Made by a program: the position numbers and the translations under genes. Below the pieces are notes generated by a model. The model made no database searches. It was not told where the DNA came from and was given only the letters and a program-made list of their open reading frames with translations. Positions 16,456-21,180 of a stretch of DNA of 41,308 nucleotides are shown here, piece by piece. Source of the stretch: a virus; the IMG/VR virus record IMGVR_UViG_3300021964_000162, positions 1 through 41,308 of that record, one strand, 5' to 3'. The first letter of the stretch is position 1. Each line of letters starts with the position of its first letter.

Positions 16456-16595
16456 GTGTTGCACAATCCTTGAGCATATACAGTTGACAGTTGCTACTGT
16501 GGTTAACAGTGAATTTACCTGATCTGTGTATTTATACATGCATACGTACGCCCACACCCCCACTGGCTCCTGCCCGCCCCCAAGCTAGGTGCCTC

Positions 16596-16694
16596 ATGTG
16601 CGCCTATATGTGCCTATGTCTGCCCGCATAATGCGCATCATGTGCTTGTGACGCTGCATAATGTGCCTGTAATGCGCTGTGAGTCTAGATGTGC
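16596..16694. repeat. ATGTGC/ATGCGC repeat cluster
   Basis: ATGTGC occurs five times (16596, 16608, 16640, 16661, 16689) and ATGCGC twice (16631, 16672) within about 100 bp, next to an unusually C-rich stretch (about 16548-16585). The composition is unlike the AT-rich neighbourhood. Candidate iterons or protein-binding sites; not coding. Confidence 0.5.
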
Positions 16695-16797
16695 GAGGCA
16701 TTGGACTACTGTTATGGTATCAGTTGCCATGCCAACATTGACCATGAGCCATAGCCTATGGAAAATCACATACCGTAGCAATGTCGGAGCATACTAT

Positions 16798-16812
16798 ACC
16801 CCCATAGGGGGT
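16798..16812. other. ACCCCC/GGGGGT hairpin
   Basis: ACCCCC-ATA-GGGGGT is a perfect 6-bp inverted repeat with a 3-nt loop, and G+C-rich. It has no T-run behind it, so it is not an evident terminator. It lies 16 bp before the first, imperfect copy of the dispersed palindrome. Confidence 0.45.
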
Positions 16813-16827
16813 GGTGGTCATTCAACA

Positions 16828-16843
16828 AGTCCCACATTGGACT
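16828..16843. repeat. Dispersed palindrome, copy 1 (imperfect)
   Basis: AGTCCCACATTGGACT: same right arm and frame as the four exact copies of AGTCCAATGTTGGACT, with one mismatch in the left arm and a changed centre. Lies in the control region upstream of the first early gene. Confidence 0.55.
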
Positions 16844-16878
16844 AGTCACCGGAACCTCACACGAGTTTAGCGCACGTA

Positions 16879-16942
16879 CTTCGCTATCGAAGATAGCTGC
16901 AGTCACCTGCGAAACGGCAGGCGCAGAGGATCACATGCGAAG
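16879..16942 (+). ncRNA. Possible branched RNA structure in the early leader
   Basis: CTTCGC (16879-16884) can pair with GCGAAG (16937-16942) to enclose two local hairpins: TATC-GAA-GATA (16885-16895) and CCTGC-GAAACG-GCAGG (16906-16921). An alternative first hairpin is GCTATC-GAA-GATAGC (16883-16897). It resembles a multi-helix junction such as found in riboswitches or small RNAs, but I do not recognise a known class, and there is no evidence of expression. Confidence 0.3.
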
Positions 16943-16962
16943 CCCCAACCCAAAAGTTATAT

Positions 16963-17042
16963 CTATCTTCTTACGGTTTTACGGGATATAAACCCCTTGA
17001 ACGTAGTGAAAGGGGATATATCCCTATAAAACCTAAAGATAG
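16963..17042 (+). promoter_or_regulatory. Long foldback just before the first early gene
   Basis: Two arms pair over three blocks: CTATCTT/AAGATAG, GGTTTTA/TAAAACC and GGGATATA/TATATCCC, continued by CCCCTT/AAGGGG, with small internal loops and an 11-nt loop (16999-17009). The foldback of about 80 nt ends some 16 nt before the ATG of the first rightward gene and just before its AAAGGA site. It has no T-run, so control of translation or mRNA stability, or a protein-binding site, is more likely than termination. Confidence 0.6.
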
Positions 17043-17058
17043 TATAAAGGATGCCGAA

Positions 17059-17703
17059 ATGGAAAATTCATCAACTCAAATCATTCCTGTTGTAAACAAC
17101 ACTCTGGAAGCTGAAGGCTTTGCCTTGGCTAAAGAATGGAAGTCAATCACCAAAGGTGATAAGGCTCGTTTCACCAAGTCAACGAAGGCTGATGGCTTTG
17201 ACACACGGCTTGGAAAGCTGATGCTAAAGCTGAAGGCTGAAGGTGGTGATCGTATCGCTTCAGCTAGGCTGAAAGATTGTGGCATTGCCGGTATCGACAA
17301 ACGCCGTAGAAGCGAAGCCATGTGGTTTGCTGCGAATGAGACAGCTTGTCGTGACTTCATTGCTAAAAGCAAAAAGGGTTTCACTAGCCTTACAGCTTTA
17401 CAAGCTGCTATGAAGCCTAAAGCTGATCCAAAGCCAAAGGCTGATACAGAGACACCTGTAGAGCCAAAGGCTGATGAGAAGTCCAATGTTGGACTAAACA
17501 GCGAAGCTGATAAGACTGATCCAAAGTCTGCTTCAGACATTGCATTGGAAGCGTTAGTTCAGTGTGAACTGAACGGTGTATCCAAAGCCAAGTTCATAGC
17601 TGCTCTTAAAGAGCAATTGGAAATGCTAGATGACTCTACTGACAAGTCAGTAATCAAGGATGATGCTGGAAATGTTTATGTTGCTGCAGCTTACGCTGCC
17701 TAG
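17059..17703 (+). CDS. First early gene; two-part protein with Lys/Ala/Pro linker
   Basis: A 214-residue protein. Residues 1-115 look folded and basic (for example KLMLKLKAEGGDRIASARLK; KRRRSEAMWFAANE), residues about 118-155 form a linker with KADPKPKAD-type repeats, and the C-terminal 60 residues are acidic and helical. It is the first product of the rightward transcript, so a host-takeover or regulatory role is likely. One exact copy of the dispersed palindrome lies in the linker and is read as KSNVGLN. No family recognised. Start supported by AAAGGA about 9 nt before ATG. Confidence 0.7.
   Translation: MENSSTQIIPVVNNTLEAEGFALAKEWKSITKGDKARFTKSTKADGFDTRLGKLMLKLKAEGGDRIASARLKDCGIAGIDKRRRSEAMWFAANETACRDFIAKSKKGFTSLTALQAAMKPKADPKPKADTETPVEPKADEKSNVGLNSEADKTDPKSASDIALEALVQCELNGVSKAKFIAALKEQLEMLDDSTDKSVIKDDAGNVYVAAAYAA
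17480..17495. repeat. Dispersed palindrome, copy 2 (in coding sequence)
   Basis: Exact AGTCCAATGTTGGACT (7-bp arms, TG centre) inside the first early gene, in frame as SNVGL. The copy at 20353 is read in the same frame with the same flanks. Confidence 0.75.
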
Positions 17704-17714
17704 GAGATATTCAA

Positions 17715-17909
17715 ATGAAATTTGAAATGTTAGATTTGTTCTTGATAGCTATGCTAATGGTCGCTATATTCTTTGGATTAGCTATCCTATCGCTTTATGG
17801 CATTGGCTACATGACTTGGCTGTCATGGACAATGCTTGGTTGCAGTGCATGGTGCTTGATATGTGGCTGGGGAATTGTAGCATACAATTTGGAGAATCGT
17901 AATGGCTAA
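17715..17909 (+). CDS. Small membrane protein
   Basis: A 64-residue protein with two membrane segments (about 6-29, LFLIAMLMVAIFFGLAILSL, and 33-57, with several Trp and Cys). It is translated from ATG with TAGGAGATA a few bases upstream; the stop of the first early gene is part of that site. Early phage membrane proteins often protect against superinfection or change the host envelope; here this is conjecture. It overlaps the next gene by 8 nt. Confidence 0.65.
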   Translation: MKFEMLDLFLIAMLMVAIFFGLAILSLYGIGYMTWLSWTMLGCSAWCLICGWGIVAYNLENRNG

Positions 17910-18120
17910 ACGTGGTGCAATCATTGACATGGGTCGTCACAAAGCCGTAGGCTCTAGCTGGAAGGCTATGGATACACTGGCTTTCAGCCGTAGCTATGAG
18001 CCTGAGACACGGCCTGAGTTTCGTGTCTATGTGACAGGTCAAGCTGATGCTATGCTTGAGCAGTACAAAAAAGATGTTGACAAGGCTGATGCCTTGGCTA
18101 TACTAGATAGCATGATGTAA
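17902..18120 (+). CDS. Hypothetical early protein
   Basis: A 72-residue soluble protein, MAKRGAIIDMGRHKAVGSSW..., with a C-terminal helix rich in Asp, Lys and Ala (YKKDVDKADALAILDSMM). The ATG overlaps the end of the membrane protein gene. A TTGACA-N16-TATACT promoter match lies in its last 45 bases and would serve the next gene. Function unknown. Confidence 0.6.
   Translation: MAKRGAIIDMGRHKAVGSSWKAMDTLAFSRSYEPETRPEFRVYVTGQADAMLEQYKKDVDKADALAILDSMM
18077..18104 (+). promoter_or_regulatory. Promoter match inside the end of an early gene
   Basis: TTGACA (18077-18082), 16-nt spacer, TATACT (18099-18104). Transcription would start near 18112, about 28 nt before the next ATG. The hexamers also encode protein (VDKA and AILD), so chance is possible, but position and fit are good. 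Confidence 0.5.
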
Positions 18121-18138
18121 CACAAACGGAGTTTGAAT
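18118..18138 (+). promoter_or_regulatory. Repeated ribosome-binding leader, copy 1
   Basis: A 21-bp sequence beginning with the stop TAA and containing CAAACGGAGTTTG recurs exactly at 18478-18498. CAAAC and GTTTG can pair and would hold the Shine-Dalgarno GGAG at the tip and edge of a tight hairpin, 8-9 nt before the ATG. Sequestered or displayed ribosome binding sites of this sort can be targets of translational control. Confidence 0.55.
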
Positions 18139-18139
18139 T

Positions 18140-18397
18140 ATGGCTTACTACACTCATACAAAAAATCCTATAGGTGCTTTCAAAGAAAAAAGCGTAGGGA
18201 ATATCTTCGAGTTTTCAGTAAACATGGGTGATAACAAGGATGAATACCCTCATTTAATATGGGTAGGTGATACTATCGGGTGGCCTTATCGCTATGGTAA
18301 AGTGCAAAAAACTGTGGTCTATGTGGCTACGGATGAGGATGAAAGCGGCGATATCATAGAAAAATGGCTGCTAAAAAAATGTTGGCTATATCAATAA
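18140..18397 (+). CDS. Hypothetical early protein
   Basis: An 85-residue protein, MAYYTHTKNPIGAFKEKSVG..., with many aromatic residues and a beta-rich middle (EYPHLIWVGDTIGWPYRYGK), then an acidic turn and a Trp/Cys-containing end (KWLLKKCWLYQ). The strong Shine-Dalgarno is part of a repeated leader shared with the gene at 18499. Followed by a hairpin and a copy of the palindrome. Function unknown. Confidence 0.6.
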   Translation: MAYYTHTKNPIGAFKEKSVGNIFEFSVNMGDNKDEYPHLIWVGDTIGWPYRYGKVQKTVVYVATDEDESGDIIEKWLLKKCWLYQ

Positions 18398-18407
18398 TGT
18401 GTATAAC

Positions 18408-18444
18408 GTAATACATACTGATACTTTAGTGAAGTATGTATTAC
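18408..18444 (+). other. Hairpin with conserved 13-nt loop, copy 1
   Basis: GTAATACATACT and AGTATGTATTAC form a perfect 12-bp stem around the loop GATACTTTAGTGA. The same loop tops a different stem at 19505-19546. A palindrome copy starts 17 nt downstream. No T-run follows. A possible promoter overlaps it: TTAGTG, 16 nt, TATAAC (18448-18453). Confidence 0.7.
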
Positions 18445-18461
18445 TTATATAACACTTAACT

Positions 18462-18477
18462 AGTCCAATGTTGGACT
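18462..18477. repeat. Dispersed palindrome, copy 3
   Basis: Exact AGTCCAATGTTGGACT in a non-coding gap, 17 nt after a conserved-loop hairpin and 21 nt before an ATG. TATAAC ends 8 nt before it, so the palindrome would cover a transcription start if that -10 is used, as operators do. Confidence 0.75.
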
Positions 18478-18498
18478 TAACACAAACGGAGTTTGAAT
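18478..18498 (+). promoter_or_regulatory. Repeated ribosome-binding leader, copy 2
   Basis: Identical over 21 bp to 18118-18138, with the GGAG enclosed in the CAAAC/GTTTG inverted repeat. It follows the palindrome without a gap and ends at the ATG of the next gene. Confidence 0.55.
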
Positions 18499-18774
18499 AT
18501 GGCTAGAAAATGTGCTTGTTGTGATGTGCCGCATACTCACATTGACCTGTTCTATGTGGATAGTGCGGATGATTATTATTGCGGTTTTTGTCATGCTGAA
18601 ACCTTTTACTTTGCCGATTATGATGAAGGCTATCAAATGGCAAGGCGTGACATTGATTACAACATATATGATGCTGAAGCATCCGTGATGTCATTTGAAG
18701 GTGATCCACCGGATTGCCCTAGGCATTGGGGATATTTGCAAGCCTGTATTCACGAAGTGGAGAAAACACAATGA
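18499..18774 (+). CDS. Cysteine-rich hypothetical protein (zinc-binding likely)
   Basis: A 91-residue acidic, Tyr- and Asp-rich protein. The N-terminal part has CACC (residues 4-7) and CGFC (29-32), the usual two halves of a zinc ribbon, with His residues between (PHTHID). The C-terminal half has two more Cys. I chose ATG 18499 over an in-frame TTG at 18493 because it lies at the right distance from GGAG. Stop overlaps the next start (ATGA). Confidence 0.6.
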   Translation: MARKCACCDVPHTHIDLFYVDSADDYYCGFCHAETFYFADYDEGYQMARRDIDYNIYDAEASVMSFEGDPPDCPRHWGYLQACIHEVEKTQ

Positions 18775-19484
18775 CTTACCAAATCTTAGGCGTTGGCAAT
18801 AATGCCAAGACAATCAAGGGTGATGGCTCTGAGTATGTAACAGCTATTCGCTATCTCAAGCCATTCAAAACCATGTTCAAGGGCAAGGTGCATAACCTAT
18901 GTGCTATGGCTGAGACAGCCAAGTGCCATGAAGGCTGCCTGTTTACGGCAGGGCGTGGTGCTATGAGTACAGTACAGCGTGGTCGTGAACGCAAGACTAT
19001 GTGGCTCTTGTCTGATGCCATTGGCTTTTATGATGCCTTGAACAAAGACATTGAGACATTCATTCGCCGCCAACTAAAGAAGGGCATCAAGCCGTGTATC
19101 CGTCTGGGTGGCACGGATGACAAGGGTGACGCTATGAAGCTGGCACCACTCTATCCTGATGCACAATTCTATGATTACACAAAGGTAATCAAACGTGCTT
19201 ATCAGGAATTGCCTGACAACTATCACATCACCTTGTCATACAGCGAAGCTGATATGAAGTATGCTGATGAGGTGGTCATGGCTGTAGTCAAGACAGGTGT
19301 AAACATGGCGGTTGTATTCCGTAACAAGCTGCCTGAGACATTCCGTGGCTTGCAGGTAATTGATGGCGACAAGGATGACCTACGATTCCTTGACCCGAAA
19401 GGTGTAGTCGTTGGCTTGATTGCCAAAGGCAGAGCCAAGCACGATGACAGTGGGTTTGTAATCGACACTGATGGACGGTTCTAA
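18771..19484 (+). CDS. Gp88/DUF7227-like phage protein
   Basis: A 237-residue protein. The stretch LCAMAETAKCHEGCLFTAGR, then GAMSTVQRGRERKTMWLLSD, holds a C...C...C cluster followed by GRG and a conserved Arg-rich helix, which I associate with the Gp88/DUF7227 group of phage proteins. The later part has IRLGGTDD and mixed alpha/beta pattern (ITLSYSEADMKYADEVVMAV), suggesting a barrel-like fold. The Cys triplet could bind iron-sulfur or zinc. The family assignment is from memory of the pattern. Start 18771 overlaps the previous stop. Confidence 0.6.
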   Translation: MTYQILGVGNNAKTIKGDGSEYVTAIRYLKPFKTMFKGKVHNLCAMAETAKCHEGCLFTAGRGAMSTVQRGRERKTMWLLSDAIGFYDALNKDIETFIRRQLKKGIKPCIRLGGTDDKGDAMKLAPLYPDAQFYDYTKVIKRAYQELPDNYHITLSYSEADMKYADEVVMAVVKTGVNMAVVFRNKLPETFRGLQVIDGDKDDLRFLDPKGVVVGLIAKGRAKHDDSGFVIDTDGRF

Positions 19485-19504
19485 ACCTCTTATGTATATC
19501 TTAT

Positions 19505-19546
19505 GTAAAATATTACTTGATACTTTAGTGAAAGTAATATATTTAC
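19505..19546 (+). other. Hairpin with conserved 13-nt loop, copy 2
   Basis: ATATTACTT and AAGTAATAT pair around the same loop GATACTTTAGTGA as at 18408-18444. With one bulged A (19541) the stem continues through GTAAA/TTTAC. The stem sequence differs from copy 1 on both sides while pairing is kept. A palindrome copy follows 16 nt later and a gene start 46 nt later. Confidence 0.7.
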
Positions 19547-19562
19547 TTAGATATACTAGACA

Positions 19563-19578
19563 AGTCCAATGTTGGACT
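19563..19578. repeat. Dispersed palindrome, copy 4
   Basis: Exact AGTCCAATGTTGGACT between the conserved-loop hairpin and the ATG at 19593. TATACT (19552-19557) lies 5 nt before it, so again the palindrome would cover a transcription start if that -10 is used. Confidence 0.75.
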
Positions 19579-19592
19579 AACGGAGATTTAAA

Positions 19593-19760
19593 ATGGACGT
19601 TAAGATTTACAAAGATTTATCCATGTATGATTTTGCAATGGATGTGTATCAGAAGGCAATGCACATGAAGCATGACCATAACGTAGAACACTACGATGTG
19701 CAGGAAATAATTACTTATCTTCAGTTCATCCACGATTCGGAGAAAGGCAATGAGAATTAA
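19593..19760 (+). CDS. Small hypothetical protein
   Basis: A 55-residue helical protein, MDVKIYKDLSMYDFAMDVYQ..., rich in Met, His and Asp. CGGAGA lies about 7 nt before the ATG. The end overlaps the next start (ATG at 19750) by 11 nt. It is the first gene after the second hairpin-palindrome leader. Function unknown. Confidence 0.55.
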   Translation: MDVKIYKDLSMYDFAMDVYQKAMHMKHDHNVEHYDVQEIITYLQFIHDSEKGNEN

Positions 19761-19920
19761 ACCTATCAACCCTGTGGCGAAGGCAATGGCACAGTCACGC
19801 CGCAGGACACAAGCTGTGCCAGATAAAACCAAGTACAATCGTAATAAGGACAAAGACAATGCAAATAAAAGTCGAGAAAATGAAGTCACTCAAAACGAAA
19901 CCCCGCAAAGCAAAGCGTGA
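19750..19920 (+). CDS. Small basic hypothetical protein
   Basis: A 56-residue, Lys/Arg/Asn/Gln-rich protein beginning MRIKPINPVAKAMAQSRRRT, a pattern (NPVAKA...VPDKTKYNR) I have seen as a small conserved protein in many marine podoviruses. No fold is evident; probably binds nucleic acid. AAAGGCA stands before the start. It overlaps the next gene by 62 nt in another frame. Confidence 0.6.
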   Translation: MRIKPINPVAKAMAQSRRRTQAVPDKTKYNRNKDKDNANKSRENEVTQNETPQSKA

Positions 19921-19993
19921 TGATTGGAAGCGTAACCGCAAGGCTATGCGTAATGCAAAGCGTATGGTACAGGAGAAAAGCTATGCAGCGTAA
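19859..19993 (+). CDS. Very basic mini-protein overlapping its neighbour
   Basis: A 44-residue ORF, MQIKVEKMKSLKTKPRKAKR and so on, almost half Lys and Arg. It has a proper AAGGA site 8-9 nt before the ATG, overlaps the previous gene by 62 nt in another frame and the next by 11 nt. Both frames of the overlap are Lys-rich, which the A-rich DNA makes easy, so this call is less sure than its neighbours. Confidence 0.5.
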   Translation: MQIKVEKMKSLKTKPRKAKRDDWKRNRKAMRNAKRMVQEKSYAA

Positions 19994-20390
19994 AGTTCGT
20001 ATGTATTGGAACCTTCACAGGAGTATTTGGTCTGTGCAGGACTGTAAGACAGGCCGTGTAACTAATCACGTTCCGGCCTTGACATTAGCTGATGCCAAGT
20101 TTGTAGTGCGTCCTGCTGGTCGTGCCAAGGTATTGCGTGAAGGCAAGAAGAATGTTCATGCCTTTGCTGTAGGTTATATTGGCCTGAAAAATGGTATTGC
20201 TACTTGCATGACCAAAGGTAGCAGGCCAGTAACGTATAACCCATACAAGAATGATACGTTTGTATTCGCTGATACTGGTGAGCCAGTGACGGATGCTGAC
20301 GTTATCTCGATGTATATATGGCAGGGTAAACCTAAAGTATATGCAATCCCTAAGTCCAATGTTGGACTAAACACTAACCCGACTAACTAA
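19983..20390 (+). CDS. Conserved-type phage protein of unknown function
   Basis: A 135-residue protein beginning MQRKVRMYWNLHRSIWSVQD, then a Val/Arg-rich part with FVVRPAGRAKVLREGKKNVH, a pattern I know from small early proteins in many phages of marine and other proteobacteria; function there is also unknown. AGGAG lies 8 nt before the chosen ATG 19983. The C-terminal end KSNVGLNTNPTN is encoded by an exact palindrome copy, which looks like an insertion at the end of the gene. Confidence 0.7.
   Translation: MQRKVRMYWNLHRSIWSVQDCKTGRVTNHVPALTLADAKFVVRPAGRAKVLREGKKNVHAFAVGYIGLKNGIATCMTKGSRPVTYNPYKNDTFVFADTGEPVTDADVISMYIWQGKPKVYAIPKSNVGLNTNPTN
20353..20368. repeat. Dispersed palindrome, copy 5 (in coding sequence)
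   Basis: Exact AGTCCAATGTTGGACT in the last codons of the 135-residue protein gene, in the same frame (KSNVGLN) as the copy at 17480. It precedes the ATG of the next gene by 45 nt. Confidence 0.75.
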
Positions 20391-20413
20391 ACCAACCATA
20401 AGGAGATTATATC

Positions 20414-20794
20414 ATGGCTATCAAAACTGTAACATTTCACCAGCGTTCAACAGGCATGACAGGACAGGTGCTTGCATCACCACAGGTAGAAACAAAGCTG
20501 TCTAAGGTAGAGGCATTGTATGCTCAGTATCACGGCGTTAAACTAGGCCGCTACAAGTTATACAAAGAGGTGCTATCACTATCACGTCAGGTCAAAGCTG
20601 AAAGCGGTGGCTATCTACAGTATGACGCACAAGCTATTGCTGGCAAGCTTCTCGACACTATGCACAAGCAACTGGGTGCAGCCATCCGTGCTAAGTCAGA
20701 TACCCCTATCGGTATCAAGCTTGGCTCATATGAGGTAGGCAATCTGCGTGACCTTGCTCGTCAGGGTCGTGGCAAAGCACGGAAGGCTGCTTAA
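20414..20794 (+). CDS. Hypothetical early protein
   Basis: A 126-residue, basic, mainly helical protein, MAIKTVTFHQRSTGMTGQVL..., ending in a Gly/Arg/Lys-rich tail (QGRGKARKAA) that could bind nucleic acid. AAGGAGATT lies about 8 nt before the ATG. No family recognised. Confidence 0.65.
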   Translation: MAIKTVTFHQRSTGMTGQVLASPQVETKLSKVEALYAQYHGVKLGRYKLYKEVLSLSRQVKAESGGYLQYDAQAIAGKLLDTMHKQLGAAIRAKSDTPIGIKLGSYEVGNLRDLARQGRGKARKAA

Positions 20795-20795
20795 C

Positions 20796-20975
20796 ATGAC
20801 AACATGGCACGTTGGAATGACCGTAAGCGGTGAAACAGCAACTCTGAGTGTGGATACGTCCATGCTCAGAGACAATGCAACATGGGAAGATGCAGTCACT
20901 ACCTGCTTTGATATGGCACAGGTGTTACATCCTGATGCTGAACTTGAGTTTAATTTCATTAAGGAGTTCGATTGA
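20796..20975 (+). CDS. Small acidic hypothetical protein
   Basis: A 59-residue protein, MTTWHVGMTVSGETATLSVD..., with a beta-like start and an acidic helix at the end. The ATG follows the previous stop by one base, so translation is probably coupled. Its N-terminal strand plus helix pattern recalls the three paralogs that follow, but the likeness is weak. Confidence 0.55.
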   Translation: MTTWHVGMTVSGETATLSVDTSMLRDNATWEDAVTTCFDMAQVLHPDAELEFNFIKEFD

Positions 20976-20976
20976 T

Positions 20977-21180
20977 ATGTCTGCTAGAGGTAAGTACACA
21001 GTATGTGTATCGGTAAGTGTACAACGTGAAGTGGTTGTATTAGCTGATGATTTTGATGAGGCTGAACAGGCAGCAATGCGTGAGGTAGTCAACCTAGTTG
21101 GTGGCACTAACCCTCGTGTCGTGTCAGCTATGGAAGGCACAACCGACTGGCCTATGGATAAGGAGATTGATGATGCCTAA
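20977..21180 (+). CDS. Paralog 1 of a small tandem family
   Basis: A 67-residue protein: a start KYTVCVSVSVQREVVVLADD, an amphipathic helix EAEQAAMREVVNLVGG and an end VVSAMEG. It shares order and spacing with the next two genes (strand - strand - helix - strand). This resembles the DpnD/PcfM-type mini-fold of some small phage and plasmid proteins, but that is a tentative link. AAGGAG lies before the ATG; the stop overlaps the next start. Confidence 0.6.
   Translation: MSARGKYTVCVSVSVQREVVVLADDFDEAEQAAMREVVNLVGGTNPRVVSAMEGTTDWPMDKEIDDA

What the first reader, a model, noticed from the sequence alone, without database searches (positions are those of the whole stretch)
18408..19578. Two hairpins with an identical 13-nt loop but different, still paired stems
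The loop GATACTTTAGTGA is the same at 18420-18432 and 19519-19531. The stems differ (GTAATACATACT versus ATATTACTT with an extension) yet both are fully complementary. That pattern, constant loop with compensating stem changes, is what a selected RNA structure gives. Each is followed after 16-17 nt by an exact palindrome copy and then by a ribosome site and a gene. So the unit hairpin - palindrome - Shine-Dalgarno - ATG is repeated as a cassette. I know of no described element with this loop.
Basis: partly seen in the sequence, partly recalled or inferred. Interest (0 to 1): 0.8.

Follow-up and report, generated by a model that had tools for sequence, protein, structure and literature searches.

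The report
Repeated RNA-like hairpin in marine phages
Between the early genes of this ocean phage, and of several other marine phage lineages, sits a hairpin whose loop is strictly conserved while its stem changes letters freely but stays paired; it matches no catalogued RNA family and is probably a control element on phage messenger RNA.

Summary
Loop GATACTTTAGTGA occurs twice (18420-18432, 19519-19531) on differently lettered, fully paired stems; shuffles never give such a pair. A third copy with a variant loop lies at 16983-17024. The window is a relative of Puniceispirillum phage HMO-2011, which has all three at matching places.

Over 100 copies in viral contigs define one motif: an 8-20 bp stem, a GA/GA mismatch, 2 bp (A-U, then C-G or U-A), a 2-5 nt loop. 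In 89 distinct copies stem letters covary strongly (95.9% paired, 324 double changes versus 101 in shuffles), while the second A of GA and the closing UGA are invariant. Copies sit between genes, behind a stop codon and 10-90 nt before a ribosome site and start; all 106 hits in loci picked by a neighbouring protein lie on the sense strand. No Rfam match; no real copy in ~85,000 bacterial/archaeal species genomes.

Best reading: an intercistronic cis-acting RNA hairpin whose apical loop is bound by a protein. Unexplained: G-U pairs are almost absent, so a DNA-hairpin role stays possible. An unannotated ~200-aa first-gene protein co-occurs (58 of 60 loci) and is a candidate partner.

The parts
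18398..18454 (+). hairpin copy 1: outer helix plus perfect inner stem 18408-18444, conserved loop 18420-18432
   Evidence: R1 covariance hit 18409-18443, 47.2 bits
19494..19556 (+). hairpin copy 2: outer helix plus perfect inner stem 19510-19540, conserved loop 19519-19531
   Evidence: R1 hit 19508-19542, 53.1 bits
16983..17024 (+). hairpin copy 3 (not in the finding): GC-richer stem, variant loop GAACGTAGTGA at 16999-17009, upstream of the first rightward early gene
   Evidence: fold z -4.17; weak R1 hit (18.3 bits, E 3.9), but its HMO-2011 counterpart scores E 2e-4 with R2 and relatives carry it 42-50 nt before the same gene
18462..18477 (.). palindrome AGTCCAATGTTGGACT behind copy 1
19563..19578 (.). 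palindrome AGTCCAATGTTGGACT behind copy 2
18499..18774 (+). 91-aa gene behind copy 1 (SD ACGGAG at 18486)
   Evidence: no family hit below E 0.03
18774..19484 (+). phage Gp37/Gp68-like gene (phrog_1617) between the two hairpins; used as anchor to collect relatives
19593..19760 (+). 55-aa gene behind copy 2 (SD ACGGAG at 19580)
17059..17703 (+). 'p200' gene, 214 aa, unannotated all-helical protein; candidate partner by co-occurrence

Best explanation
It is a cis-acting structured element in the intercistronic regions of phage early transcripts, most likely acting as RNA. SHOWN: a stem of free sequence but kept pairing, capped by an apical motif GA-(N)-AY-N2..5-RU-GA; repeated 2-5 times per phage; placed between a stop codon and the next SD/start in the sense direction; shared by several unrelated marine phage lineages. 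INFERRED: once transcribed it folds into a ~25-bp imperfect hairpin; the conserved cap (probably a tandem sheared G.A, two pairs and a small loop) is the docking site of an RNA-binding protein or RNase, the stem being a sequence-free handle; binding or cleavage there sets processing, stability or translation of the gene pair on either side, so that all genes carrying the element form one post-transcriptional group. The partner may be the phage's own first early protein (p200) in HMO-2011-type phages, or a host factor, since other lineages lack p200.
For: Covariation: 89 distinct copies 95.9% paired, 324 double-changed cells versus 101 in shuffles, register-slid controls 34-55% paired; again in copies collected through a neighbouring protein rather than the motif (97.2%, 0/500 shuffles reach it). 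The inner pair also covaries C-G/U-A/U-G. Orthologous sites: L165 and L167 differ over ~110 nt essentially only at two pairs, both compensated; related copies show 157 two-sided Watson-Crick changes versus 32 broken cells (pairs not independent). Cap conservation: second A, closing U, G, A in 89/89 distinct copies, first G 85/89, across 37 loop variants. Position: 117 of 138 copies have an SD-preceded start within 120 nt in the sense direction, 21 antisense, 28% at random places; 13% inside long ORFs versus 74%; most lie within 25 nt of the preceding stop. Strand: 25/25 and 106/106 hits in protein-selected loci on the gene strand.
Against: Almost no G-U pairs (5 of ~1,100 cells, no A-C), unusual for an RNA helix and more like a DNA constraint or templated repair of the palindrome. 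No transcript data. Genes behind the element fall into 42 unrelated clusters of 110, so no shared function points to a specific regulation. p200 is missing from the distant lineages that have the hairpin.
Confidence: 0.55

Rival explanations
1. DNA-level hairpin: the element works as an extruded or single-stranded DNA hairpin (replication, or a structure-recognised recombination site that lets early-gene cassettes be exchanged, in the manner of integron attC sites).
For: Near-absence of G-U pairs; base pairs exchanged whole, including transversions; position directly behind stop codons; small genes differ on the downstream side of otherwise conserved hairpins between the window and HMO-2011.
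Against: Strict sense orientation relative to genes and fixed place before the SD are not needed by such a site; no attC-type boxes were recognised by eye; integrases also occur in relatives that lack the motif.
Confidence: 0.2
2. RNase III-type processing site of early mRNA, as between the early genes of T7: a long irregular duplex is cut, and the loop is incidental.
For: Intercistronic position in the early region, ~25-bp imperfect duplex with internal bulge, several per genome.
Against: Bacterial RNase III is not known to need a particular apical loop (own knowledge), yet the cap is the most conserved part; the model finds nothing in T7.
Confidence: 0.15
3. Antitermination or elongation-control RNA, working on RNA polymerase directly (like HK022 put) or through a phage protein (like lambda nut/boxB).
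For: Early-region position; in HMO-2011-type phages a second palindrome follows, giving a two-hairpin unit; put RNAs are ~70 nt with two stem-loops (PMC9378689).
Against: One copy before each of several genes rather than one behind each early promoter; the second hairpin is missing in other lineages and looks like a DNA operator; no model hit in HK022 or lambda.
Confidence: 0.08
4. Promoter of a single-subunit phage RNA polymerase on the other strand: the reverse complement reads TAATAC...TCACTAAAG, close to T7/T3 promoters.
For: Sequence resemblance only.
Against: No PF00940 polymerase in 31 motif-bearing records while the same search finds it in autographiviruses; it would point against the genes; a promoter does not explain covarying arms.
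Confidence: 0.01

Closest known systems
SAS/ESAS repeats of Cluster K mycobacteriophages (PMC3203893)
   Same: Repeated in the non-structural half of a phage genome, just upstream of start codons of a subset of genes; half of them carry imperfect inverted repeats; function unknown.
   Different: There the arms (17 bp) have a consensus sequence and the spacer varies; here the arms vary and the spacer (loop) is conserved. Model R2 has no hit in TM4.
RNase III processing sites of T7 early mRNA
   Same: Irregular hairpins between early genes.
   Different: No conserved apical loop is known for them (own knowledge); no sequence/structure match in T7.
HK022 put and lambda nut/boxB antitermination RNAs
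   Same: Structured RNA in early phage transcripts; boxB also has a G.A-closed loop (own knowledge).
   Different: put is a two-hairpin unit near PL/PR, boxB a 5-nt loop beside boxA; here a longer cap, repeated before many genes; no model hit in HK022 or lambda.
Integron attC sites
   Same: Intergenic hairpins behind stop codons, recognised by structure more than sequence.
   Different: No conserved R boxes recognised, strict sense orientation to the SD, conserved apical cap instead of base-of-stem boxes (comparison from own knowledge, not run).

Membership tests
Any Rfam 15 family | score above or near a family's gathering threshold at the hairpins | tested here: not met
   window 16500-21000 and eight loci holding diverse copies: no hit on copies in the window; only chance sub-threshold miRNA-type hits on one copy of L243
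T7-like phage RNAP promoter | phage encodes a single-subunit RNA polymerase (PF00940) | tested here: not met
   0 of 31 motif-bearing records; positive control 3 of 3 autographiviruses
Cluster K SAS/ESAS | 13-bp asymmetric SAS at the start codon plus sequence-conserved 17-bp arms | tested here: not met
   arms vary freely, loop conserved; R2 finds nothing in TM4
T7-type RNase III site | cleavage by RNase III in an intercistronic irregular duplex | not testable with these tools
   position and duplex fit; cleavage needs an experiment
HK022 put RNA | two-stem RNA of ~70 nt near the early promoters acting on RNAP | tested here: inconclusive
   one hairpin per gene; second hairpin only in one lineage; no R2 match in HK022; activity not testable
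Cis-acting structured RNA (as a kind) | covarying helix, conserved unpaired motif, sense strand, untranslated position | tested here: met
Cis-acting structured RNA (as a kind) | G-U pairs tolerated as in ordinary RNA helices | tested here: not met
   5 G-U of ~1,100 cells, although G-U was allowed when copies were chosen
Integron attC site | R and L boxes at the base of the stem, recombination by an integrase | not tested
   compared by eye only

The most novel reading that the evidence does not exclude
A new class of phage RNA element, shared by several otherwise unrelated marine phage lineages, that ties scattered early genes into one post-transcriptional group; in HMO-2011-type phages the unannotated first early protein (p200, 17059-17703) is its cognate RNA-binding regulator.
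Probability: 0.25. Interest if true: 0.8.

Novelty: new variant of a known kind. Interest (0 to 1): 0.62.

Why it matters
HMO-2011-type phages are described as a dominant, broadly distributed marine viral group (PMC9038755), and nothing about their gene control was found in the papers read. A compact, strongly covarying element repeated before early genes gives a direct handle on it, and it comes with isolates (HMO-2011, CRP-1, CRP-345) and a candidate partner protein, so it can be tested.

Tried and rejected
T7/T3-like promoter on the reverse strand: rejected, no polymerase gene. Sigma-70 promoter TTGATA-17-TATAAC seen in a few copies: no constant -10 by inspection of the copies; promoter-like hits near the chance level. 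Intrinsic terminator: no T-run, none predicted at the hairpins. Cellular element: the only two exact matches in ~85,000 bacterial and archaeal species genomes lack paired stems. Known protein domain for p200: none in Pfam, PHROGs or PDB sequences, no PDB fold match; one BFVD match below 1e-3, unnamed. The search for related loci with the p200 alignment failed for lack of a conserved stretch. Searches for named relatives of the distant lineages gave only weak matches. Literature searches found no description of the element.

Full report
CHECK OF THE OBSERVATION. The two loops are at 18420-18432 and 19519-19531, with perfect stems of 12 and 9 bp. These are the only stems of at least 9 bp around a 13-nt loop in the window; dinucleotide shuffles of the whole window give 0.3 on average and never two with one loop. 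The outer arms continue as an imperfect helix (I1: 25-nt arms, 80% complementary), and the RNA folds have z-scores of -4.7 and -4.2.

WHERE THE WINDOW COMES FROM. It is a 41,308-base virus record, relative of Puniceispirillum phage HMO-2011 (75% DNA identity in this region; DNA polymerase 84% protein identity). HMO-2011 has three copies at the matching places (4-42, 1208-1238, 54102-54133): the same loop in the first two, the variant GAACATAGTGA in the third, and different stems.

THE MOTIF. A second, looser scan and the Gp37/Gp68-like gene between the hairpins brought loop variants. The shared pattern is stem - GA - (N) - AY - N2..5 - RU - GA - stem. In 89 distinct aligned copies the second A and the closing U, G, A never vary, the first G is 85/89, and 37 loop sequences occur. 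The second inner pair is C-G in 71, U-A in 15, U-G in 2. The likely reading is a tandem G.A mismatch topped by two pairs and a small loop, GNRA-like in some copies (GUAA, GCAA); the sheared geometry is inferred.

COVARIATION. Model R1 was built from 35 copies chosen for long stems, so its own counts are biased. The hits of R1 over motif loci give 95.9% paired cells, 324 double-changed cells against 101 in shuffles, and 34-55% pairing when arms are slid. Less biased: copies found in loci fetched only through the neighbouring p200 protein give 97.2% and no shuffle reaches it. At orthologous sites, flanks stay nearly identical while inner stems change on both arms, including coordinated loss of a base pair. 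Sequences are related and contigs partly redundant, so counts are not independent events.

POSITION AND STRAND. Of 138 copies, 117 have an SD-preceded start within 120 nt downstream in the sense direction, against 21 antisense and 28% at random places; 13% lie within long ORFs against 74%. Most begin within 25 nt of the preceding stop and 10-90 nt before the next start. In loci chosen through a protein, 25 of 25 and 106 of 106 hits are on the gene strand. The downstream proteins fall into 42 clusters of 110.

DISTRIBUTION. Among isolates: HMO-2011, CRP-1 and CRP-345; not CRP-2, -3, -207, -212, -235, -603, -738, HTVC033P, nor the tested autographiviruses. Several uncultured lineages without a close cultured relative carry 3-5 copies each, with other stems and loops. 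In the species-representative collection of bacterial and archaeal genomes there are two exact matches, both without paired stems. No Rfam family matches.

MECHANISM. Sense orientation, untranslated intercistronic position and a conserved apical cap on a sequence-free stem fit an RNA hairpin recognised at its cap. Whether the outcome is processing, stability or translation is not shown. Against a plain RNA reading stands the near-absence of G-U pairs (5 of about 1,100 cells), although G-U was allowed when copies were chosen. DNA-level pairing or templated correction of the palindrome would explain that. I keep a DNA hairpin as the first rival. The T7-like promoter reading is rejected.

CANDIDATE PARTNER. 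Comparing motif-bearing and motif-less HMO-2011-type genomes, the first early gene (p200; 17059-17703) is among the families found only in motif-bearing ones. An HMM finds it in most motif-bearing contigs of that type. Of 60 p200 loci with at least 1.5 kb downstream, 58 have the hairpin. The reverse fails: distant lineages have the hairpin and no recognisable p200. It is predicted all-helical (mean pLDDT 74) with no known fold or domain. Co-occurrence within one lineage is weak evidence; p200 could equally bind the GTCC palindrome, which lies inside its own gene in 66 of 88 cases.

COMPARISON. The nearest described thing found is the ESAS of Cluster K mycobacteriophages (PMC3203893): inverted repeats before start codons, function unknown, but with conserved arms and variable spacer, the mirror image of this element. 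T7 RNase III sites and put/nut RNAs are functional analogues, not family matches.

Noticed in passing
16828-16843, 17480-17495, 18462-18477, 19563-19578, 20353-20368: Palindrome GTCC-N6-GGAC, five per genome here and in HMO-2011. Its core is uniform within a genome (79% identical pairs within contigs, 35% at random) but differs between genomes (AATGTT here, GACAGC in HMO-2011, once in the reverse orientation) and it also lies in coding sequence: it looks like a DNA operator of an unknown protein.
   Followed up: partly
17059-17703: p200, an unannotated ~200-aa first early gene product of HMO-2011-type phages, with a conserved core around GFDTRLGKL...IDKRRRSEALWF; no Pfam, PHROG or PDB match.
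   Followed up: partly
18118-18138 and 18478-18498: Identical 21-nt ribosome-site leader TAACACAAACGGAGTTTGAAT before two different genes.
   Followed up: no
18077-18104: Strong sigma-70-like match TTGACA-16-TATACT (11 of 12) inside the end of the gene at 17902-18120.
   Followed up: no
L214:1479-1560 (-): Sub-threshold tmRNA match (42.9 bits, E 8e-14) in a motif-bearing viral contig.
   Followed up: no
L367:3640-3720 (+): In one of the two p200 loci without the motif, the place behind p200 holds a different hairpin-like repeat followed by the same palindrome.
   Followed up: no
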